The position numbers and the translations under genes are program-made. DNA of 20,469 bases from a virus. Shown here one piece after another: positions 378 to 19,156 of the stretch; positions within the stretch are counted from its first letter, which is position 1; every line of letters begins with the position of its first letter. Location: positions 1 to 20,469 of IMG/VR virus record IMGVR_UViG_3300007734_000440. One strand, written 5' to 3'. The notes below the pieces were generated by a model. That model was not told the origin of the DNA, made no database searches, and saw only the letters and a program-made list of their open reading frames with translations.

Positions 378-722
378 CTACTTACCGCCTTCCAAGTAAT
401 GAACGCATAATTCGATTGACTGAAAGATTTCTGTGAGTGTTTCATCTGAATCCAAAATTGGATCCCAGTCCCAACTGGTGACAATCTGACAAGCATTTTC
501 AGGGTGTTCAAAGTCCATACCAAAGTTGAGATTAACGAGAAGTCCCCCCTCAAAGGAGTCTGGAATTCTGCCTCCGTATAATTCGGTTGCGGTGAAGATA
601 AAATCTCCACATTCTCTCGTAAGCCAGTAATAATCTTCGTACGACTTTTCAGTTGTTAAGGAGAAGTCCTCATCACAAGCACCCCAAACATCTTCGTTAA
701 ACATAGCCCTAAAGTTATTCAT
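378..722 (-). CDS. Very acidic 114-aa phage protein of unknown function
   Basis: The start ATG at 722-720 has a strong leftward ribosome site (AAGGAGAA, about 7 bases upstream). I count roughly 24 Asp/Glu against 5 Lys/Arg, so the protein carries a net charge near -19 over 114 residues. It is also rich in Trp, Tyr and Phe. I see no signal peptide, membrane segment or catalytic motif. Small, highly acidic, early-region phage proteins are often DNA mimics or inhibitors of host enzymes (T7 Ocr is the classic case). That role is a guess from charge and size only. The gene is the first well-supported one in a leftward unit, read from a promoter-like region at 758-845. Confidence 0.8.
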   Translation of the reverse strand: MNNFRAMFNEDVWGACDEDFSLTTEKSYEDYYWLTRECGDFIFTATELYGGRIPDSFEGGLLVNLNFGMDFEHPENACQIVTSWDWDPILDSDETLTEIFQSIELCVHYLEGGK

Positions 723-1212: not shown

Positions 1213-1682
1213 ATATTTAGCGTCAATCGCCTTAACACCTTGAGCAAGAGTTACAATCTCGCCTTCTTTCAGGCAAGATGTTTAACACCTTTTCGCAAAG
1301 AGTTAATGGTTACCCAACTAAAACGGCCTCTGGTTGCTCGGTGGGCCTCATTGGTATCTCATACAACGCTGGACTTATAAACTTAACCATTAGCTTATAA
1401 GTTTGTGGTTAATAAAAACCTTTCTATCTTCAGATTTATCGAATATCTCGTCTTGGCAGACTTACCCTTATACTGCTCGTGGAGTCGTAACTCCTTCTCG
1501 GCAATCTTTACAAACGGGGTATGCCCCTAGCCTTTCGACCCTGTAAAGCGAAGACCCCAAGAGTAGCGACCGTAGTCGGATATGTCTACCCTCAGCATCC
1601 CAAGTAATCTTTTCAGAACGAAGCCTATTTGGTACTTGGTGGAATTCTGTTAAAAAAACCAGACCCAAATTCAGCATACCAC
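1213..1682 (+). ncRNA. Candidate large structured non-coding RNA
   Basis: No convincing ORF lies here, but perfect stems are packed along the whole stretch: TAAC-AC-CTT/AAG-A-GTTA (1233-1253), ATCT-C-GCCT/AGGC-A-AGAT (1256-1279), TTAAC-AC-CTTT/AAAG-A-GTTAA (1282-1306), GTCT/AGAC (1450-1461), GGAGT/ACTCC (1481-1494), CTTTACA/TGTAAAG (1506-1548) enclosing GGGG/CCCC (1516-1527), GTAG+CGAC/GTCG+CTAC (1563-1589), and CCAAGTA/TACTTGG (1600-1639). ACTTATAA/TTATAAGT (1373-1402) interlocks with TTAACCA/TGGTTAA (1383-1412) as a pseudoknot. A 12-bp long-range pairing joins 1301-1312 to 1384-1395. Extra G-U pairs favour the rightward strand. Size, intricacy and phage setting recall the GOLLD and ROOL RNA classes of phages, but I cannot confirm membership. 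The 3' end is uncertain. No tRNA or tmRNA signature was seen. Confidence 0.5.
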
Positions 1683-1770: not shown

Positions 1771-1956
1771 ATGATTAAAATCTTTTTTTCCGAGGAGGCT
1801 TATCAAAAGGCCATTGATGAAAGGGTGATGTTTTTAACAGAACACATCGGTCGTTTGAATAAGACCATTGATGACTTGGTAGAGCAAGTGACCCTATCAA
1901 AGCACAAAAAGGTCAATAACTTCATCAAAAACAAGGCTAATAAAAAGAAGAAATAA
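1771..1956 (+). CDS. Small 61-aa helical protein with basic tail
   Basis: The ATG follows AAGGGGG by a few bases and the frame ends in a TAATG overlap with the peptidase gene, so the two are probably translationally coupled. The protein looks almost entirely helical (a likely coiled coil at about residues 9-45) and ends in a Lys-rich tail (NKANKKKK). I do not recognise the family. Being the first gene of the operon and coupled to the predicted peptidase, it could be a partner or adaptor of that enzyme, or an independent nucleic-acid binding peptide. Neither idea has direct evidence. Confidence 0.75.
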   Translation: MIKIFFSEEAYQKAIDERVMFLTEHIGRLNKTIDDLVEQVTLSKHKKVNNFIKNKANKKKK

Positions 1957-2507
1957 TGACCGCTATTGTGGCTTACAAAGATGCTGAGTTTATTTACTAC
2001 GGGTCGGATTCCAGAGTCTCTTTTGATAATGGGTCGGTTTATGATACCTGTAATAAGTGGCGGGTGATGGCAGGTCGTTCGTCCAAGTTCCCTATTATTG
2101 TAGGGTGTGCAGGTTCGGCTAGGCTGGATAACCTGATAGTGTCAAGTGCTAAAAATTTCGAGGCGGCTGAGACACCTTTTGAGGTGGCTGACTTGATTAA
2201 GAAAGCCATTTCACTAGACGGATGGAAAGAAGAAAAGGATGAGGGAGGCGAACCGCCTTCTTATTCGGTTGATGTGTTAATTATCTTTGAAAAGAACCTT
2301 TATCGCATTGGTTCAGATTTATCGGTAACGGAGATACAAGACTTTCAGTTTGTAGCCATAGGCAGTGGCGAACCTTATTGTTTAGGGGCGGCTTACGGAA
2401 GTAAAAGTAAGAAACCTAAAGAAATGATTAGAACGGCTTTATCCGCAGCAATTAAGTTTGATCCTCACTGCGGAGGCAAGATGTTTATAGGAGCCATTGA
2501 AAAATGA
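1956..2507 (+). CDS. Proteasome/HslV-type threonine peptidase (Ntn-hydrolase)
   Basis: After removal of Met the protein starts with Thr. Numbering that as Thr1, Asp falls at 17 (GSDSRVS) and Lys at 33 (NKWRV). These are exactly the positions of the nucleophile, Asp and Lys that define active beta-type proteasome subunits and HslV. Further family features are a first strand TAIVAYK, IIVGCAGSA (like the AGFAG of HslV), VAIGSGEPY (the HslV-type IGSG turn, Ser136), and DPHCGG near the C terminus, aligning with the DxxSGG motif but with Cys for Ser. At 183 aa it is the size of HslV. No propeptide is seen, since the Thr follows the initiator Met directly. No unfoldase (HslU, ClpX) is present in the window. 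It could mature virion proteins, degrade host factors, or have lost the ring assembly. The fold is fairly certain; the role is unknown. Confidence 0.8.
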   Translation: MTAIVAYKDAEFIYYGSDSRVSFDNGSVYDTCNKWRVMAGRSSKFPIIVGCAGSARLDNLIVSSAKNFEAAETPFEVADLIKKAISLDGWKEEKDEGGEPPSYSVDVLIIFEKNLYRIGSDLSVTEIQDFQFVAIGSGEPYCLGAAYGSKSKKPKEMIRTALSAAIKFDPHCGGKMFIGAIEK

Positions 2508-3717: not shown

Positions 3718-4166
3718 GTCAGCCACAAAGCACAGAAGTTTGGCAAGAAGAAAAGCCCAAGGGTGGTTTTGGCGTTGCGATGACCCCTGAGCAGTTTGAG
3801 GCTTTGGCTTTTAAAATGAATTTTATATCTGAAGAAACCGCAAGGAGAGAAAAGGCTGTTGCCGATTCTTTGCAAGATTTAAAAAAGATCGAGGCTGTTA
3901 GAACTTATGCTTCTTTTGTTAAAGACATTACAACGAGTATCCAAACGCTAAGTACGCTACCCAATACAGAATTAGTAAGAGAAGAATTATTAAAATCATT
4001 ACACAAAGTCAATGAGAATTTTACCCCCAGTAAGGAGCTACATTTTGAGGAAGAACTACAACTTCAAACTCTCTCCAGAGCAGTCGAAGCGAATCAAGCG
4101 AATGGTGTTCTATATGAACTTCACCCGCAATCCCAAGAAGAAGAAGGAAATGAGACAAAAAGTTAA
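3714..4166 (+). CDS. Hypothetical 150-aa protein before the small terminase
   Basis: The start ATG overlaps the previous stop (ATGA) and has AAAGGA upstream. The protein is hydrophilic and mostly helical, beginning with a disordered MSQPQSTEVWQEEKPK stretch followed by a MTPEQFEALAFKM helix. Its last ~50 codons (4012-4166) overlap an open frame that continues into the small terminase, and both frames read like plausible protein there. Either the terminase begins near 4150 and this gene is complete, or the true product ends earlier through a frame change. No function can be assigned. Its position suggests a packaging accessory protein. Confidence 0.65.
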   Translation: MSQPQSTEVWQEEKPKGGFGVAMTPEQFEALAFKMNFISEETARREKAVADSLQDLKKIEAVRTYASFVKDITTSIQTLSTLPNTELVREELLKSLHKVNENFTPSKELHFEEELQLQTLSRAVEANQANGVLYELHPQSQEEEGNETKS

Positions 4167-4755
4167 TTCGTACAAGGGTCAGTTAGACCGTATCCGTAGA
4201 GATGCTCACGCAGACGAGTGGGTTATCAACGGTATTGCTCACTCACGCCAAGATGTGATTTATAAAGTTTTGGAGTGGGTATCCGAAGGCAATGCTTTAA
4301 AAATGTTTGCCGAACAACCTGGGGCCCCTGCCGTTGGAACGATCTATAAATGGTTTAAGAATCATCCTGACTTTGAAAAAGATTTCCGATCTGCCGAAGA
4401 AGCGTCAGGTCATATTCTTGCCGATAGAGCCTTGACCGAAGTTCTTCATTTAACTGATAAGGAAGAAGTGCCCGTGGTTAAACTTCGGTATGATGCTCTT
4501 ACCAGACGAGCCGCACAGATGAATCAACGCTTTCAGGATAAGCAAGTCTTCAGGCAAGAAGAAGATGTTAAAAGTTTATCGGATGATGAACTCAAGAAAA
4601 GACGAGATGATCTTTTTGCCAAGGTTAAAGAAGAACTCAGGCAAGAAGGATGGGTAGCCCCTGCGGGTGAAATAGACATAAGTGTTGAAAACAATGAAGT
4701 TACAGAAGAAACAGAATCTGATGAAGTAGATAACCCTAATGATAACAACACTTAA
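4150..4755 (+). CDS. Terminase small subunit
   Basis: The small terminase recognises phage DNA and delivers it to the large subunit for packaging. From ATG 4150 the protein has 201 residues. A helix-turn-helix covers about residues 36-72 (VIYKVLEWVSEGNALKMF, then GTIYKWFKNHPDF), followed by a helical region (KDFRSAEEASGHILADRAL, then KLRYDALTRRAAQMN). This pattern is familiar from terminase small-subunit-like proteins of many phages. The C terminus is acidic and disordered. The frame is open upstream to ATG 4012, which would add 46 residues overlapping the previous gene. I chose 4150 for the purine-rich AAGAAGGAA just before it and the shorter overlap, with reservations. A terminator follows three bases after the stop codon. 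Confidence 0.75.
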   Translation: MRQKVNSYKGQLDRIRRDAHADEWVINGIAHSRQDVIYKVLEWVSEGNALKMFAEQPGAPAVGTIYKWFKNHPDFEKDFRSAEEASGHILADRALTEVLHLTDKEEVPVVKLRYDALTRRAAQMNQRFQDKQVFRQEEDVKSLSDDELKKRRDDLFAKVKEELRQEGWVAPAGEIDISVENNEVTEETESDEVDNPNDNNT

Positions 4756-4757
4756 AC

Positions 4758-4784
4758 AAAAAAGGAGTCCGAAGACTCCCTTTT
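4758..4784. terminator. Bidirectional rho-independent terminator
   Basis: GGAGTC (4764-4769) and GACTCC (4774-4779) form a perfect stem, flanked by six As on the left and CTTTT on the right. Read leftward it is a textbook terminator: stem, UUCG tetraloop, then six Us. It therefore ends the leftward cassette gene at 4802-5032. Read rightward, with a CGAA loop and four Us, it can also end the small-terminase transcript. Confidence 0.85.
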
Positions 4785-4801
4785 CGTTACATCAAAAAGG
4801 C

Positions 4802-5032
4802 TTATTCGGCCTTAGCGGTGTAGCCAGTGGTTTTATAAGCAGAACCCGTAGCGGATTTGCCCATATCAACATCGGCTTTAAAAGAAGCGAACTCAGGTCG
4901 AGCCGATTGGCCGCCACCTTCGCCATCAGAAGTTTCCTTCATCAAGGCTTCGGGGCTTTCACCTTCAACTACTTTGATGGTGTTTTTGCCAAACTCAACG
5001 GGGAGTCCTGCCATTTTTTTTTCAAGAGACAT
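4802..5032 (-). CDS. Leftward moron-like gene between the terminase genes
   Basis: This 76-aa reading frame runs against all its neighbours. It is supported by GAGGT about five bases before its ATG, an extended -10 promoter at 5075-5083 and a UUCG-loop terminator after its stop. It begins MSLEKKMAGLPVEFGKNT, has a central Gly-rich stretch (DGEGGGQSARPEF) and ends in GYTAKAE. I see no membrane segment, signal peptide or known motif. A gene with its own promoter and terminator, inverted within structural genes, matches the definition of a phage moron. Such genes often act in the lysogen or early infection (exclusion, host modification), but this product's role is unknown. The 115-codon rightward frame over the same bases (4739-5086) lacks such signals. 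Confidence 0.7.
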   Translation of the reverse strand: MSLEKKMAGLPVEFGKNTIKVVEGESPEALMKETSDGEGGGQSARPEFASFKADVDMGKSATGSAYKTTGYTAKAE

Positions 5033-5074
5033 TTCGTACCTCGTAGATTAAGAGTGCCATCTAAACCCAAATAT

Positions 5075-5102
5075 ATTATAACATAGGAATCTTATGAGTG
5101 AA
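5075..5102 (-). promoter_or_regulatory. Extended -10 promoter for the inverted gene
   Basis: Read leftward, TGTTATAAT (5083-5075) is a perfect extended -10 (TGn plus TATAAT). TTCACT (5102-5097) lies 16 bases upstream as a 4-of-6 match to the -35. Transcription would start near 5068, giving a leader of about 36 bases before ATG 5032. The -35 falls inside the first codons of the large terminase gene, so rightward late transcription would run straight through this promoter. Confidence 0.65.
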
Positions 5103-6476
5103 TGGTCTGAATTAGAAAAAATAGAAATGGAACTTTCCAGAAGGGAACGGGAGAGCAAACTCAAGAACTTTAGACCCTACCCTAAACAACTAGAGTTTAT
5201 GAACGACAAGCACAAGGTCGTGGCTCTGTTTGGGGGTAATCAATCGGGTAAAACCACCGTAGGATCAGCCTTTGTAGCCTATCACCTTACGGGGGAGTAT
5301 CCTTCTTGGTATAACGGCATCAAGTTTGACCGACCCGTGATGGTTTGGGTGGCAGGAGAATCCTCAACTCGTGTTCGAGATACCCTACAAGAGAAGCTTT
5401 TTGGCCCTTTAGGTGAATGGGGAACAGGTTTAATACCTAAGCAGACCCTTGTAGGTGACCCTATTCGCAAAGGGGGTATTCCTGGAGCCATTGATATTTG
5501 CAGAATTAAACATAAATCAGGCGGTACAAGCACCATACAGTTCTTTTCTTATGACCAAGGTCGAGAAAAGTTCCAAGGCAGTACCGTAGATCTTGTTTGG
5601 TGTGACGAAGAACCCCCTGAAGACATCTATAAGGAAGCCAAAATGCGTACCATTGCCGCTTCTGGGTATGTTTTCCTTACCTTTACACCTTTGCGTGGTA
5701 TAACGCCTCTATGCGATGAAATGATAGGCAATAAAGACAACATTTATGGCGTTCATTACCTTACCTGGGATGATGTGACCCATTTATCCGAAGTAGACAA
5801 GCAAATGCAGGTAGCAGGACTTGGCCCCCACGAAATTGAAAGCCGTAAATATGGAAAGCCGAGTATTGGTTCAGGTAAAATCTATCAATTTGACGAATCC
5901 GAGTACACTGTAACCGATTTTACGATTCATCCTAAGTGGCGAAGCATTGCGGGTCTTGATGTGGGTATTTCTCATCCAACCTGTGCCGTTAAATTGTCTA
6001 TTGATGATGAATCAGGGGTCGGTTATATCCATAAAGAATATAAAGTGTCTGGAGAAACCTCTATTTACCACGCTTATAAACTAAAAGATTGGCCTTGTCG
6101 ATTTTCTATTGACCCAAATTCTCGTCAGCGTTCCATTGCAAGTGGAGACTCTCCTTATAAAATGTTTCAAGACATTATGGGTGATGATCGGTTGATTCCT
6201 GCCGACAATAGGGTAAACTATGGTATATCACTAATAAGAGCCAAAATCGCTACCGAGCAACTCTACATATTTGAGTCTTGCGTAGAAACCTTAAAGGAAA
6301 TGCGTTTGTATCGCTTTAAAGAAAACGGAGACATACACAAGGTTGATGACGATTTGATGGATGCGTTTAGATATTGTATAACCGCTTGGGACAAAGCCGT
6401 TGCTCCACCTGAGCTGAATAAAAAATATGAGTTAAACTATGAATGGAAGCCAACAAATAAAAGAATCGGTTACTAG
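5094..6476 (+). CDS. Terminase large subunit (ATPase and nuclease)
   Basis: This is the packaging motor and DNA-cutting enzyme that docks on the portal. The ATPase domain shows Walker A GGNQSGKTT at residues 47-55, Walker B VDLVWCDEE at 165-173 and the coupling motif TFTP at 196-199. The RNase H-like nuclease domain shows acidic residues at D289 (GLDVG), D340 (FSID) and the D418-D423 cluster (DDDLMDAFRY). At 460 aa it is slightly shorter than P22 gp2 (499 aa), and gene order with the portal and scaffold fits the P22 type. AGGAA precedes ATG 5094. Because a terminator and an inverted gene separate it from the small subunit, its transcription depends on read-through or a weak local promoter (a poor TATAAC at 5077). 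Confidence 0.95.
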   Translation: MSEWSELEKIEMELSRRERESKLKNFRPYPKQLEFMNDKHKVVALFGGNQSGKTTVGSAFVAYHLTGEYPSWYNGIKFDRPVMVWVAGESSTRVRDTLQEKLFGPLGEWGTGLIPKQTLVGDPIRKGGIPGAIDICRIKHKSGGTSTIQFFSYDQGREKFQGSTVDLVWCDEEPPEDIYKEAKMRTIAASGYVFLTFTPLRGITPLCDEMIGNKDNIYGVHYLTWDDVTHLSEVDKQMQVAGLGPHEIESRKYGKPSIGSGKIYQFDESEYTVTDFTIHPKWRSIAGLDVGISHPTCAVKLSIDDESGVGYIHKEYKVSGETSIYHAYKLKDWPCRFSIDPNSRQRSIASGDSPYKMFQDIMGDDRLIPADNRVNYGISLIRAKIATEQLYIFESCVETLKEMRLYRFKENGDIHKVDDDLMDAFRYCITAWDKAVAPPELNKKYELNYEWKPTNKRIGY

Positions 6477-9059: not shown

Positions 9060-10130
9060 ATGCCAAAAACAAAAATGCAAGAAATCCGTGAAAACGCTAA
9101 ACGAGCCGATGATATGGCAAAGCAGTTAGCGGCTGAAGGAAATCTGTTTCCAGCAGAAGGCGTAAAGAGTCAATTTTTTACGAATAATCTGCCTGACCTT
9201 TCCCAAGCCCCGACCACTGAATCTGATGTCAATGAAGCGGTACAAGCTGAACCTTCACAACCTGTTACAGAAACAGTTTCTTCAACGGACAACAATTTGA
9301 GTGCCAACGAAAATCCATCCGTAGAAGAAGTGAAGGATAATTTAGTTTCCGAGAGGCAGTATAAAGCGGCTGTTAAAGCAATGAATGATGCTCAGAGACA
9401 AAAGGCTGAATCAGATCGTATGCTTAAACAACAAGCCGAAGAACACGAAAGATTTAAAGCAGAATTAATGGCTATCAAGCAACAAGTTCAACAAGGAAGT
9501 AAACCGAATAATGTATCACTCGTTGACCAAGCATTATCGCCTTATGCCGAAGAATATCCTGACACATTTAAAATGGATATTCTCGCAGCAAATGCCGTCA
9601 AGGAAGAAGTGAGGAACCTCATTGATTCAAGATTTCAAAATGTCGAAGACCAACTTCGTCAGTCCCGTGAAGAACAAGATAGATTTAAAGTCCTTGAGCA
9701 GATTCGCTTAAGAGATGATAAGGTCAAAAAAGTTCATCCCGATTATGATGATGTTCGTTTATCCGATGATTTTAAAACTTGGATTTATGGTGAAGCACCG
9801 AGTCTATACAAAGCCGTTTATGAAGGAGCGATTCCCTTTGATGAGAGGGATGCCGTTAAAATCGTAAGCGACTTCAAATCGTACGCTACTCCACCTGTTG
9901 AAAATAAAACTGTCACTTCACGCCCCAAACCTGGTGCAGCCGAAGCTTCCGTGAGAACGGCTTCTGCGGTTGTTGCTGATATGGGGATTAATAATGAACC
10001 TGAATTTACTGCTGAAGATATGCAACGACTGCCGTATATGATTAATCGAGTTAAAGACCCTGTACAACGCAAGGCTTTAATGGATAGGGCACAAAATTTT
10101 ATGACTAAGCAGATTTCAAAAACCAAATAA
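9060..10130 (+). CDS. Scaffolding protein
   Basis: Scaffold fills the procapsid, guides coat assembly and leaves before or during packaging. The call rests on position (after the portal, before the coat) and composition. The 356 residues are very hydrophilic and helical, with a low-complexity acidic, Ser/Thr-rich stretch at 45-95. Likely coiled coils lie at about 97-146 (AMNDAQRQKAESDRMLKQQA) and 188-222 (FQNVEDQLRQSREEQDRFK). A basic helical C terminus ends QNFMTKQISKTK. P22 gp8 likewise binds coat with a positively charged C-terminal helical hairpin. GGAGAGAG precedes ATG 9060. Sequence match to any one family cannot be shown by eye. Confidence 0.8.
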   Translation: MPKTKMQEIRENAKRADDMAKQLAAEGNLFPAEGVKSQFFTNNLPDLSQAPTTESDVNEAVQAEPSQPVTETVSSTDNNLSANENPSVEEVKDNLVSERQYKAAVKAMNDAQRQKAESDRMLKQQAEEHERFKAELMAIKQQVQQGSKPNNVSLVDQALSPYAEEYPDTFKMDILAANAVKEEVRNLIDSRFQNVEDQLRQSREEQDRFKVLEQIRLRDDKVKKVHPDYDDVRLSDDFKTWIYGEAPSLYKAVYEGAIPFDERDAVKIVSDFKSYATPPVENKTVTSRPKPGAAEASVRTASAVVADMGINNEPEFTAEDMQRLPYMINRVKDPVQRKALMDRAQNFMTKQISKTK

Positions 10131-14079: not shown

Positions 14080-14852
14080 TGTCACTTATTGGTAATCGCT
14101 ATGTTCAAGCTGGTGATCCAGGGGCTGTTGGTGTAGGTTACCAGTGGCTCGATACGGATACTTCGCTATTGTTTGAAAGAAATGGATCCAATACCGCTTG
14201 GGTTCAAGTCTACAATACCAATCAAGCCAATGGCGGTCTATTGCCCCAAACGGGTGGCTCGGTGACGGGTGCTATTACAGGGACAACAGGATGGGCCCCA
14301 TCCGACAACGCTAATTTTGCTACGGCAGCCAAAATTGCAGGACAAAATATTGCTACGGTTAATTATGTGAATCAGCAAGTGGCTTCTTTCAACGATGTTA
14401 TTTCGGCTAAGATATCACAAGCCATAGCGGCATCAACTACTTCAACTCAAACTAATAATAATATTGCAAAATCGGGTAGCGGTGCTAAGAATGATGGATA
14501 TTTTTCTCCTACGGGTTCACCCGCAGCAAGTACAACGGGAGATGCTGGTGTAACAGCCCTTCCTATAATACCGTTACCATACTATCCCGATAGTGGCGGT
14601 GAGGCTCAAGAGTCCGATTGTATATGGATTGGGTCTATGGGCTTAAGTGCATCAGACAGAAACCAATATAATTCTAAAATTGTAGATAATAGCGTTGCAA
14701 ATAAAAGTTGGATAAATATATTCTACCAATACTCATCTCGTACTTATAAATCATATTCTTACCAAGGTTCAGACAGCACTTTTGGAACAAATTTTACCTA
14801 TACACCTATGGGTATGAATTGGATGATTATTGCGGTGAATTCTGCACAATGA
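14079..14852 (+). CDS. Structural protein with fibre-like repeats, probable fibre or tail component
   Basis: The 257-residue protein begins MSLIGNRYVQAGDPG and has GYQWLDTDTSLLFERNGSNTAW, a small beta-hairpin motif seen in many phage fibre N termini. This is followed by GGSVTGAITGTTGW and 'DNANFATAAKIAGQNIATVNYVNQQ', which is typical of trimeric fibre shafts ('...A.vNYvn.q'). The C-terminal 120 residues include SGSGAKNDGYFSPTG and an aromatic-rich tail. Start and stop overlap their neighbours (TAATG, ATGA). It probably forms a fibre or tail appendage. It is unusual that such a gene lies between the adaptors and the gp10-like protein. Confidence 0.65.
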   Translation: MSLIGNRYVQAGDPGAVGVGYQWLDTDTSLLFERNGSNTAWVQVYNTNQANGGLLPQTGGSVTGAITGTTGWAPSDNANFATAAKIAGQNIATVNYVNQQVASFNDVISAKISQAIAASTTSTQTNNNIAKSGSGAKNDGYFSPTGSPAASTTGDAGVTALPIIPLPYYPDSGGEAQESDCIWIGSMGLSASDRNQYNSKIVDNSVANKSWINIFYQYSSRTYKSYSYQGSDSTFGTNFTYTPMGMNWMIIAVNSAQ

Positions 14853-17800
14853 CAAAACAAATCAGATTAGATTTCAGCGGTGGTGTTAATGTCATAGCCG
14901 ATAAGTCAGTTCTACCTGACAAGTTTGGCACGGTGATGGATAACATTGATGTTCGTAGCGGGTTTCCCCGTTGCTTCAAAGAACCCATATTTAATCAAAT
15001 TGTTGCTAATACTGATACGACTAAGATATTTAACTTTCGTGGTCGTTGGATATATTCGGAAAATTGGCGTGATTATGTAGCCGACTTTATTAATGGTATT
15101 GAACGCATCTATTGGACTGAAAGTATCAATAGCGTTGGATACGATGGTGATGGAGATTTAGCCCCACAAAAGATGATTGAAGGAACCGAGGTTCCATTGG
15201 GAACTAGCAGACCAGAAACAGCCCCCATTGTCTCGTCTGGTAAGAGTATTGTTCCGTTGATGAGTCCACCTGTTGCTATTGATGTAGGCGGATTAACCGA
15301 GGGCACTTATTATTACGCTGTATCTGCCGAATTTGGCAAAGGAGTCACAGCTCCTTCTGATATTGTAAATGTTGTTATTGCACAAAACGATACGGCTAAT
15401 ATTAAACTTTCTTGGAGTATGGTTACAGATGCTGTTGGCTATATCATTTGGGGTCGTGCGAATACCTATACGGCAATGAAAAGATTACAAAGGGTGTCTT
15501 CTGGATCACTTAGTTGGACAGACAACGGTAGTTTGACACCCAAGGGTGACAGCCCCAATGATTACTTTGACAACTCTCCTGTTTCCTATGTATATACCTA
15601 CGAAAGAGATGTTAATAATGTTTTTAATGAATCAGGATTAAGTCCCATTTCAGATAGGATTACTACAAATGCCTCAAGAAATATAGCCAGAGATTTTTTA
15701 AATGATGGATATCTTTCACAACCTACGGCTGTTGATATAAGTACCGATGATGGTTACGCTTTCACGGTAGAGCCTAGACCCTCAACGGTAGACACTTTTC
15801 CGTATTATGTACCCATTGAAATTATTGGTGCTGAATATCAACAGAGTTTAAATCAAGTTCTTTTTACAACATTGAATCCACACAGACTTACAACAGATGA
15901 TGAAATTATATTTACAGGTTCGGCTTGGCAAAGTCCTGCATACAACAACCAAAGATATAAGGTTGTTGTTACTAGCACAACTCAATTTGCTATTTTGAAT
16001 ATACCAGCACCTAATGACCAAATACTTGGGGGAATAGTTGATGATGGATATACCTTTGTCCCTGTAAGCGGTGGTATACAAACAACCAATTTATTTTCAG
16101 TTATAAGTGAAACGGGTGAGGGAACGGGTGCAATATTTGATGTAACTTTTTTCCTACCGCCTGTTGGCCCAGTCGATTCTATTGTAGATACGGTAACCGT
16201 AGATACTCCTGGATCGGGTTATGGAATTGGGGATATTGTTTATATTCAGATTGAACCAGTTTCCTATCAGTCACAACCTGCACCAGAAAGCATTGAACAA
16301 GGGGAATCTTCAACAACGATTACTAATGTTGGTTCAAGCTATCCAAAACCGAGTAGCATTAAGTCTTTTAACTTTACGAGTCCTGGGTCTGGTTACACAC
16401 CTGGTAATTACTCTGTCTCACTTACGGGTGGATCAGGCACTGGGGCAACCGCAACTTTGAACGTTGATACTGATGGTCTTGTAAACAATGTGCAATTGGT
16501 AGATTTGGGTGCAGATTATCAAATTGGAGATGTTTTATCGGCAACCATTACAGGTGGTTCTGGTTTTTCTATATCCGTATCTGATATTAACTATGGAACC
16601 TATGAAAATATTTCTCTTACAGGTGGTTCTGGTACTGGGGCAAAGGCCACTGTGACCGTTGATGCTGCGGGTCAAATGGCTGCTATTGATGTTACCGATG
16701 GTGGAACTGGATATACCAATTCTGACACCAATTTGGGCGTGTCGGGTTTAGCAACTGGTTCTGGTGCGTTACTTGATGTTCTTGCGACACAAATAAATTA
16801 TCAAAAACAATATTTTACTATTACTGAAGTTGATAGCAATAATGAAATAAGTATCTGTCGTTCACGCATTACCATCAGTCCCGTTCCAACCGAAGGAACC
16901 ATTAATGATGGCGATGCAATGTATTTAAATATGTCGGATTCTGCTATTGGAAGAATTTATAGAGTTACTTTTGTTGGAGGGAATGGCTTTAGGGATGGTT
17001 TGTATTCAGACATTCCTTTAGTTGGAGGTTCTGGTTCGGGTGCTACGGCTAATATCACTATTGCTGGTGGAGTAGTCACTGGCGTTGATATAGAAAATCA
17101 AGGATTAAATTATCTAGTTGATAATATTATTGCACCAACAACATATTCTTTAGAAAGTGAAAATAGCATAAACACAAAAACCCTAACCAATGGCGGAACT
17201 GGGTATGTTGATGCTGTCTATGCAGATGTTCCATTAACGGGTGGTTCTGGTAGTGAAGCCGAGGCACAGATAACCGTTGTAAGTGGAATTGTTACCGTAG
17301 TTACTATAACCAACTTTGGCAAAGATTATACTGCTGGAGATGCTCTTTCTGCTAACAATGCCAATCTTGGCGGTTCAGGTTCTGGCCTTGTTGTTACCGT
17401 TGATTCCGTATATATCGGTGCTGGTGCATCCATAACGGTTACCGCAATTGAAGATGCTGAAATTATTAATGGATTATACCAAGTCTACACAACCGACCTA
17501 GATGGTAATCCAATTCCCGAAGGCTCTTTTGATATTAATGAGTATGTTGGTGCTTGGACTGCCCCAACCGCCCTTGGTGCTTCTGCCCAATGGGTTCCGT
17601 TCAATGGATATTACCGATATTGGAATCTCTACCGAACAGGTGCAGCAGGTGCGTTTCAGCTTGTAGATCAGATTGATATTTATACTTCTAATTATTTAGA
17701 TAAAACAAGTACCGAATATCTAGGAACCACACCCTCGTCTTACTATACGGAGAATGGAATATTTGGCCCTGTCCAAGTAGATTTTATGCCCCCACCCTTG

Positions 17801-19156
17801 GGGCTACAATCACTTACAAGCCACTATGGAATGTTATTTGGGGTTGATGGACAACGAGTGAAGTGGACACCCATTGGACAACCTGACGCTTGGCCCGATG
17901 TTTTCTATTATGACTTTACCTATAAGCCCCTAGCCTTATCAAGTTTCGGTACGGCCATTATTGTCCTCTGCGAAGATGCAATTTACCGAATAGACGGTAA
18001 TAGGCCATCTGAAATGTCGCTATCCAAGACCAATGCCAACGAAGGCTGCATTGCCCCTTACACCGTTCAAAAGACCAACAAGGGTTTAATCTACCTCAGC
18101 AAACGAGGGCTAATGATATTCAACGGTATGGATGCCCAATGCATTACGGATAATCGAATCCCAAGTAATATGCTACTTGGCCCAAGCAAACTTGAAAATC
18201 CTGTTGATTTTTGGTGGATACCAACTAAACTAGGATACTTTTACGGCAACTTTGCTTTCAATGATGGAGTTTACTTTACCGATGAAAGTGCTAATCGATT
18301 TTACCAAACTAATCCTATTCCTTCCGCTATTTATGATATTAAATCTTTTTATCATAATGGTCGCTATTACCTTGTTTATACGACAAGCGATTTCTACTCT
18401 GCTCACACTACGCTTTGCGTGGATCTCCAAATTGAAGGCTTTCCTATCACAACCTTGGGCCTGAAACCCATTGATGTCATTGTTAATGAATTAGATGATG
18501 CTTATGCTTTATTCGGTAATCAAGGTAATGGTGACTTAACTAACCTATCAACCTTTAAGGCTCAGAACTCCGAAGCCGAGCCTTTTGTAACCGAAGAAAC
18601 CTATACCGTTCCCTCTAGCCCCTATGTGGTAACGGTAATCAATTCAACTACTTATGTATCTAACCAAAGTGTTTATAACTCTACTGATAGTGTTTTAATG
18701 ACCGAGGTTGCAAGTAGCCCATCTACTAACGAATATATGGTCACCAATGGGGTTTATACTTTTGGTTCTGCCAATCAAGGCAAACAAATTATTATTACTT
18801 ATCAATTTGGTTTTGCTGTCAATGCTGGACTTAGTGTTTGGAAGTTATTCAATGGCAAAAGCAATATGCCTCTTGTCATTCGTTCGGGTCAAAAAGGATT
18901 CGGTAATACCACCGAAAGAAGGAAGTATGAACATCTTGAGTTCTACGGCAACGGAACGCTTTACGCACGATGCTACATTGATGGCAATTGGATTGCTGAT
19001 GATATTGTAAGCTTGACCGAACTACCCTCTAAGGCAAGGAAGTTTAATCTACCCAAAGGGCAACGACTTGGCTACAACTTGGACTTTGAAGCCTACGGAG
19101 ATACCAATAGGTTAGTGGTAGAATATGGCTATGCAGAAATGGAGAGTCCGTCTTAA
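14849..19156 (+). CDS. Giant DNA-stabilisation/tail-hub protein (P22 gp10-like) with large insertion
   Basis: ATG 14849 overlaps the prior stop (ATGA). The 1435-residue product has a core like P22 gp10 or T7-type nozzle propellers. The N-terminal RLDFSGGVNVIADKSVLPDK region and the block at about 985-1250 (LFGVDGQRVKWTPIGQPDAW, IVLCEDAIYRIDG, NKGLIYLSKRGLMIFNG) are the characteristic propeller blades. P22 gp10 has 472 residues, so two-thirds is extra. The extras are an FnIII-like region (about 135-245), an FCCH-like module (about 325-395) and about five Gly-rich repeats (about 414-860). A C-terminal module (about 1253-1327, with YMVTNGVYTFGSANQGKQIIITY) is known from other phage tail proteins. 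It probably closes the head and forms the tail tube, with the insertion exposed outside. Confidence 0.8.
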   Translation: MTKQIRLDFSGGVNVIADKSVLPDKFGTVMDNIDVRSGFPRCFKEPIFNQIVANTDTTKIFNFRGRWIYSENWRDYVADFINGIERIYWTESINSVGYDGDGDLAPQKMIEGTEVPLGTSRPETAPIVSSGKSIVPLMSPPVAIDVGGLTEGTYYYAVSAEFGKGVTAPSDIVNVVIAQNDTANIKLSWSMVTDAVGYIIWGRANTYTAMKRLQRVSSGSLSWTDNGSLTPKGDSPNDYFDNSPVSYVYTYERDVNNVFNESGLSPISDRITTNASRNIARDFLNDGYLSQPTAVDISTDDGYAFTVEPRPSTVDTFPYYVPIEIIGAEYQQSLNQVLFTTLNPHRLTTDDEIIFTGSAWQSPAYNNQRYKVVVTSTTQFAILNIPAPNDQILGGIVDDGYTFVPVSGGIQTTNLFSVISETGEGTGAIFDVTFFLPPVGPVDSIVDTVTVDTPGSGYGIGDIVYIQIEPVSYQSQPAPESIEQGESSTTITNVGSSYPKPSSIKSFNFTSPGSGYTPGNYSVSLTGGSGTGATATLNVDTDGLVNNVQLVDLGADYQIGDVLSATITGGSGFSISVSDINYGTYENISLTGGSGTGAKATVTVDAAGQMAAIDVTDGGTGYTNSDTNLGVSGLATGSGALLDVLATQINYQKQYFTITEVDSNNEISICRSRITISPVPTEGTINDGDAMYLNMSDSAIGRIYRVTFVGGNGFRDGLYSDIPLVGGSGSGATANITIAGGVVTGVDIENQGLNYLVDNIIAPTTYSLESENSINTKTLTNGGTGYVDAVYADVPLTGGSGSEAEAQITVVSGIVTVVTITNFGKDYTAGDALSANNANLGGSGSGLVVTVDSVYIGAGASITVTAIEDAEIINGLYQVYTTDLDGNPIPEGSFDINEYVGAWTAPTALGASAQWVPFNGYYRYWNLYRTGAAGAFQLVDQIDIYTSNYLDKTSTEYLGTTPSSYYTENGIFGPVQVDFMPPPLGLQSLTSHYGMLFGVDGQRVKWTPIGQPDAWPDVFYYDFTYKPLALSSFGTAIIVLCEDAIYRIDGNRPSEMSLSKTNANEGCIAPYTVQKTNKGLIYLSKRGLMIFNGMDAQCITDNRIPSNMLLGPSKLENPVDFWWIPTKLGYFYGNFAFNDGVYFTDESANRFYQTNPIPSAIYDIKSFYHNGRYYLVYTTSDFYSAHTTLCVDLQIEGFPITTLGLKPIDVIVNELDDAYALFGNQGNGDLTNLSTFKAQNSEAEPFVTEETYTVPSSPYVVTVINSTTYVSNQSVYNSTDSVLMTEVASSPSTNEYMVTNGVYTFGSANQGKQIIITYQFGFAVNAGLSVWKLFNGKSNMPLVIRSGQKGFGNTTERRKYEHLEFYGNGTLYARCYIDGNWIADDIVSLTELPSKARKFNLPKGQRLGYNLDFEAYGDTNRLVVEYGYAEMESPS
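16090..17430 (+). repeat. Degenerate Gly-rich repeats within the gp10-like protein
   Basis: Five imperfect units share the pattern '..GGSGxGAxAxxxVdxxGxVxxVxitxxGxxYxxGDxL'. Anchors are TGEGTGAIFDV (~16110), LTGGSGTGATATL (~16430), LTGGSGTGAKATV (~16620), VGGSGSGATANI (~17025) and LTGGSGSEAEAQI (~17240), with a half unit GGSGSGLVV (~17375). At the DNA level, short stretches such as GGTGGTTCTGGTA recur, which could promote recombination and change in repeat number. Similar repeats occur in tail proteins of other aquatic phages. Confidence 0.7.

What the first reader, a model, noticed from the sequence alone, without database searches (positions are those of the whole stretch)
4758..5102. Self-contained inverted moron between the two terminase genes
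A leftward 76-aa gene has its own perfect extended -10 promoter (TGTTATAAT), good ribosome site and UUCG-loop terminator, in a place where terminase genes are usually co-transcribed. The promoter -35 lies in the first codons of the large terminase. Morons often encode lysogenic or defence functions, and this product matches nothing I know. It also implies rightward read-through is needed to express the large subunit.
Basis: partly seen in the sequence, partly recalled or inferred. Interest (0 to 1): 0.7.

Follow-up and report, generated by a model that had tools for sequence, protein, structure and literature searches.

The report
Conserved backward mini-gene between terminase genes
In a family of uncultured tailed viruses, a very small gene with its own start and stop signals runs backward between the two DNA-packaging genes; it is real and ancient in this family, but what its short, probably floppy protein does is unknown.

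Summary
Window 5102-4754 (minus strand) carries an extended -10 promoter, a leader, a Shine-Dalgarno site, a 76-codon gene and a UUCG-loop terminator between TerS and TerL. Promoter and terminator pattern matches alone are at chance level; conservation makes the case. All 16 IMG/VR contigs with a TerS relative carry the unit, in a 76-aa or a 42-51-aa form. The leftward frame is under purifying selection (dS 0.88, dN 0.16); the overlapping rightward 115-aa ORF is not. The terminator stem shows compensatory changes. A leader element with GGCACTC is conserved at least as well as the -10 and occurs once per genome.

It is not a sporadic moron. On a TerL tree the carriers form one 100/100 group. 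It lies on the early-gene strand; two sister genomes have a longer leftward block there that includes a YqaJ-type nuclease gene. Outgroup phages lack it. No integrase was found. The protein matches no family and is predicted disordered.

Most likely it is an ancient moron-like unit, read early by host RNA polymerase, making a small effector or regulatory peptide. Timing and function are inferred. In passing: a conserved structured RNA at about 1455-1650 (minus strand).

The parts
5075..5102 (-). Promoter: weak -35 TTCACT (5102-5097), 16-nt spacer that also holds the rightward terL ribosome site, extended -10 TG-T-TATAAT (5083-5075)
   Evidence: TGnTA...T invariant in 12 divergent sequences; -35 not conserved
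5047..5068 (-). Conserved leader element from the inferred transcription start (about 5068): GGGTTTAGATGGCACTC...AA; possible operator or RNA signal
   Evidence: mean 1.82 bits per column over GGCACTC; once per genome; hairpin reading not supported
5039..5042 (-). Shine-Dalgarno GAGG
   Evidence: SD-like sequence present in the relatives
4802..5032 (-). Leftward gene, 76 aa, hydrophilic, predicted disordered; shorter 42-51-aa forms in relatives share the C-terminal core E-[FY]-x(5)-A...K...G-x-A...T-x-GY-x-A
4754..4779 (-). Intrinsic terminator, C(UUCG)G loop and U-tract; the U-tract overlaps the TerS stop codon
4012..4755 (+). Small terminase subunit (Sf6-type, PF20901), convergent with the cassette
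5094..6476 (+). Large terminase subunit (Terminase_6N, PF03237), divergent from the cassette

Best explanation
An ancient, fixed, moron-like transcription unit. Host RNA polymerase with its main sigma factor reads leftward from an extended -10 promoter that overlaps the start of terL, through a conserved leader, a single small gene and a terminator just downstream of terS. The product is a short hydrophilic, probably disordered peptide. Shown: gene, purifying selection, terminator, conserved promoter and leader sequence, presence throughout the clade, same strand as the early-type genes. Inferred: it is made early, before or independently of late transcription; the peptide acts by binding a host or phage protein (host takeover or an anti-host function) rather than as an enzyme; the leader element is a regulatory site; and late rightward transcription, which makes RNA complementary to the whole unit, shuts it down later.
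For: 16/16 contigs with TerS carry it. dN/dS about 0.18 for window vs L013, and 9 synonymous vs 0 nonsynonymous changes for L015 vs L023. Terminator stem with compensatory changes and a stronger U-tract leftward in every lineage. Invariant extended -10, and a leader element occurring once per genome. Cassette on the early strand in G001 and G002; in L061 and G002 it heads a leftward gene block that reaches a YqaJ-type nuclease gene. Carriers are one side of a 100/100 branch. No integrase in G001 or G002. Low-confidence model, mean pLDDT 56, fits disorder.
Against: No expression data, so timing is inferred from strand and promoter type only. No homologue of known function. Homology of the products of L054, L061 and L062 to the window protein is weak or not significant by sequence; it rests on position and architecture. 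The L060 small genes are not similar to it.
Confidence: 0.5

Rival explanations
1. Transcription-interference or autoregulatory switch: polymerase bound at the leftward promoter covers the terL ribosome site and start codon and collides with late transcription, delaying terL; the peptide or another factor acts on the conserved leader element to release this.
For: The extended -10 lies close upstream of the terL start codon in all lineages; GGCACTC is conserved above the -10 and the block occurs once per genome. [quoted passage not shown]
Against: Compact spacing alone would also explain the overlap; the protein itself is under purifying selection, so regulation in cis cannot be the whole role; no RNA structure support for the leader.
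Confidence: 0.2
2. A classical moron of temperate phages: lysogenic conversion, superinfection exclusion or defence gene expressed from the prophage.
For: Own promoter and terminator, inverted in the late operon, absent from outgroup phages.
Against: No integrase or resolvase in two genome-length relatives; one TerL scan of bacterial genomes gave only one distant relative (34% identity); no defence family match; never absent in the clade.
Confidence: 0.15
3. A packaging or virion accessory peptide that acts with the terminase, kept next to its partner genes.
For: Always lies between TerS and TerL; co-inherited with this TerL lineage.
Against: Opposite strand to all late genes, with its own promoter; the sister genomes have a recombination-type gene in the same block.
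Confidence: 0.12
4. Chance ORF; the real gene is the rightward 115-aa ORF in the same bases.
For: The rightward ORF is open in the close relatives with the 76-aa form.
Against: In the rightward frame nonsynonymous change exceeds synonymous (pN 0.26, pS 0.12) while the leftward frame shows the opposite; the rightward ORF is not kept as such in the short-form relatives.
Confidence: 0.01

Closest known systems
Moron cassettes of lambdoid phages, in particular the ant moron / immI region of P22-like phages (PMC2629481)
   Same: Independently expressed gene or genes inserted in a late operon when related phages are compared; the P22 region is thought to affect read-through into a downstream late gene
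   Different: Different place (between terS and terL); never absent within the clade; single small gene of unknown family; no sign of lysogeny; one conserved leader element
Early host-takeover peptides of lytic phages (for example T7 gp0.x genes; own knowledge)
   Same: Small, hydrophilic, apparently read from a host-type promoter on the early strand
   Different: Isolated inside the late operon instead of the early region; no sequence match to any family

Membership tests
Moron (phage accessory cassette) | Own promoter and terminator | tested here: met
   conserved in relatives
Moron (phage accessory cassette) | Inserted between genes that are adjacent in related phages | tested here: met
   TerS or the next rightward gene overlaps or abuts TerL in EBPR podovirus 1, CV-1-33, RHph_Y25, Bjorn and several IMG/VR outgroups; only at the level of TerL about 34-38% identity
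Moron (phage accessory cassette) | Variable presence or content among close relatives | tested here: not met
   present in 16/16 close relatives; content differs only in the sister lineages
Moron (phage accessory cassette) | Expressed from the prophage | not testable with these tools
   no integrase found, no expression data
Any known protein family | Significant profile match | tested here: not met
   Pfam, PHROGs, NCBIfam, PADLOC, PDB. Best is phrog_33963 (unknown function), E 0.0074 with one member only: inconclusive
Early host-takeover peptide | Early expression and a host target | not testable with these tools
   strand agrees with the early-type genes; no expression or binding data

The most novel reading that the evidence does not exclude
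The unit is a lineage-defining timing switch: an early leftward promoter laid over the terL start, a unique leader operator and a disordered peptide that together hold back large-terminase synthesis until late in infection.
Probability: 0.12. Interest if true: 0.65.

Novelty: new variant of a known kind. Interest (0 to 1): 0.4.

Why it matters
It shows a moron-like unit that has become a fixed part of a phage lineage in an unusual place, between the two terminase genes, with a conserved leader element and a small-protein family not in the libraries searched. If it regulates terL or the host, it would be a compact, testable case of opposing transcription built into a packaging operon.

Tried and rejected
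Rightward 115-aa ORF as the real gene: rejected by codon selection. Leader hairpin (GGUUU...AAACC with a GGCAC loop): visible in single sequences but not supported by covariation. Pairing of the leader motif with a GAGTGCCAA site in the scaffold gene (second TGGCACTC match, 9299-9306): not found in all relatives, treated as chance. phrog_33963 as the known family: borderline, one member only. Structure prediction: low confidence, so no fold search was made. Named phages and plasmids: no significant protein match. A search for a T7-type RNA polymerase (PF00940) gave no hit, but its control rang nowhere, so absence is not shown. One pair count on the terminator failed on string length; one search serves instead.

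Full report
Observation. The window is a 20,469-base IMG/VR virus record. Between TerS (4012-4755, Sf6-type) and TerL (5094-6476) the minus strand carries TTCACT-16-TATAAT with an extended -10 (TG-T-TATAAT), GAGG six bases before ATG 5032, a 76-codon ORF to 4802, and a GGAGUC-UUCG-GACUCC stem with a U-tract that ends on the TerS stop codon. The pattern scans by themselves are at chance level, so the case rests on comparison.

Relatives. Searches with the product, with TerL and with TerS gave 16 contigs holding a TerS relative; all also hold TerL and all have a small leftward ORF that starts shortly before terL, about 57-70 bases in most and 32 or more in L054. Close relatives have the 76-aa form; others (TerL 80-86% identical) have 42-51-aa forms sharing the C-terminal core; L054 (TerL 76%, a 55-kb contig, G001) has a 44-aa form.

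Coding. In the close relatives changes fall mostly at third positions of the leftward frame. Window vs L013: dS 0.88, dN 0.155; the same bases read rightward give pN 0.257 over pS 0.124. L015 vs L023: nine synonymous and no nonsynonymous changes in 30 codons.

Signals. In 12 divergent sequences the extended -10 (TG..TA...T) is invariant, the -35 is not conserved, and a leader element GG(T)TTGA..TGGCACTC is conserved, with 1.82 bits per column over GGCACTC against 1.6 over the extended -10. A sequence model of this block finds one site per genome. A leader hairpin is not supported. The terminator is: in the alignment fold 6 of 13 pairs show double changes, and the leftward T-tract exceeds the rightward one in all ten sequences compared.

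Origin. In a TerL tree of 34 rows the 13 carriers are one side of a 100/100 branch. This count includes L060, L061 and L062 (TerL 42-47%), where the products are different or only weakly similar (blastp L061 vs G002 small protein E 0.002) but the layout is the same: promoter-like sequence, SD, one or two small genes, terminator. In L061 and G002 (the contig of L062) the leftward block continues with homologous small genes and a YqaJ-type nuclease (PF09588, E 4e-13 and 4e-14) before meeting TerS. In named phages with TerL 34-38% identical no leftward small gene was seen directly before terL, and a rightward gene overlaps or abuts it in most. So this is an insertion relative to outgroups but ancestral in the clade; the outgroup check was made on a sample, and absence there means no SD-preceded small leftward ORF at that place.

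Context. In G001 and G002 the early-type genes lie on the cassette's strand and the structural genes on the other. In the window the leftward ORF at the left end suggests the same. No tyrosine integrase or serine recombinase was found; completeness of the records is not stated by the tools, so absence is not absolute.

Function. No family match in Pfam, PHROGs, NCBIfam, PADLOC or PDB beyond one borderline PHROG of unknown function, and no significant match in phage or plasmid records. The AlphaFold2 model is of low confidence (mean pLDDT 56, ten sequences), in keeping with disorder but not proof of it. The most likely reading is an early, host-polymerase-driven unit for a small binding peptide; this step is inference. 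The P22 ant moron (PMC2629481) is the closest precedent for an inserted unit in a late operon that may also influence a downstream late gene.

Verdict. Real, conserved, and moron-like in build, but a fixed lineage feature; function open.

Noticed in passing
window about 1455-1650, minus strand: A conserved structured RNA between the divergent leftward and rightward operons: 44 consensus pairs, 14 with changes on both sides, in nine relatives, better on the minus strand (-43.5) than on the plus strand (-27.5); no Rfam or phage-record match. Not obvious in G001.
   Followed up: partly
window 1956-2507 (+): Gene resembling the phage HslV-type peptidase family (PHROG 1040, E 1.4e-16); an ORF of similar start lies at the matching place in G001 (20577-21131).
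   Followed up: no
window 378-722 (-): Leftward 114-aa ORF at the left end with protein-like sequence but no Pfam match; probably an early gene.
   Followed up: no
window 14819-19156 (+): 1445-aa protein with many GGSG(S/T)GA-type repeats; this stretch is much more divergent from contig G005 than the rest of the window, which is 99% or more identical.
   Followed up: no
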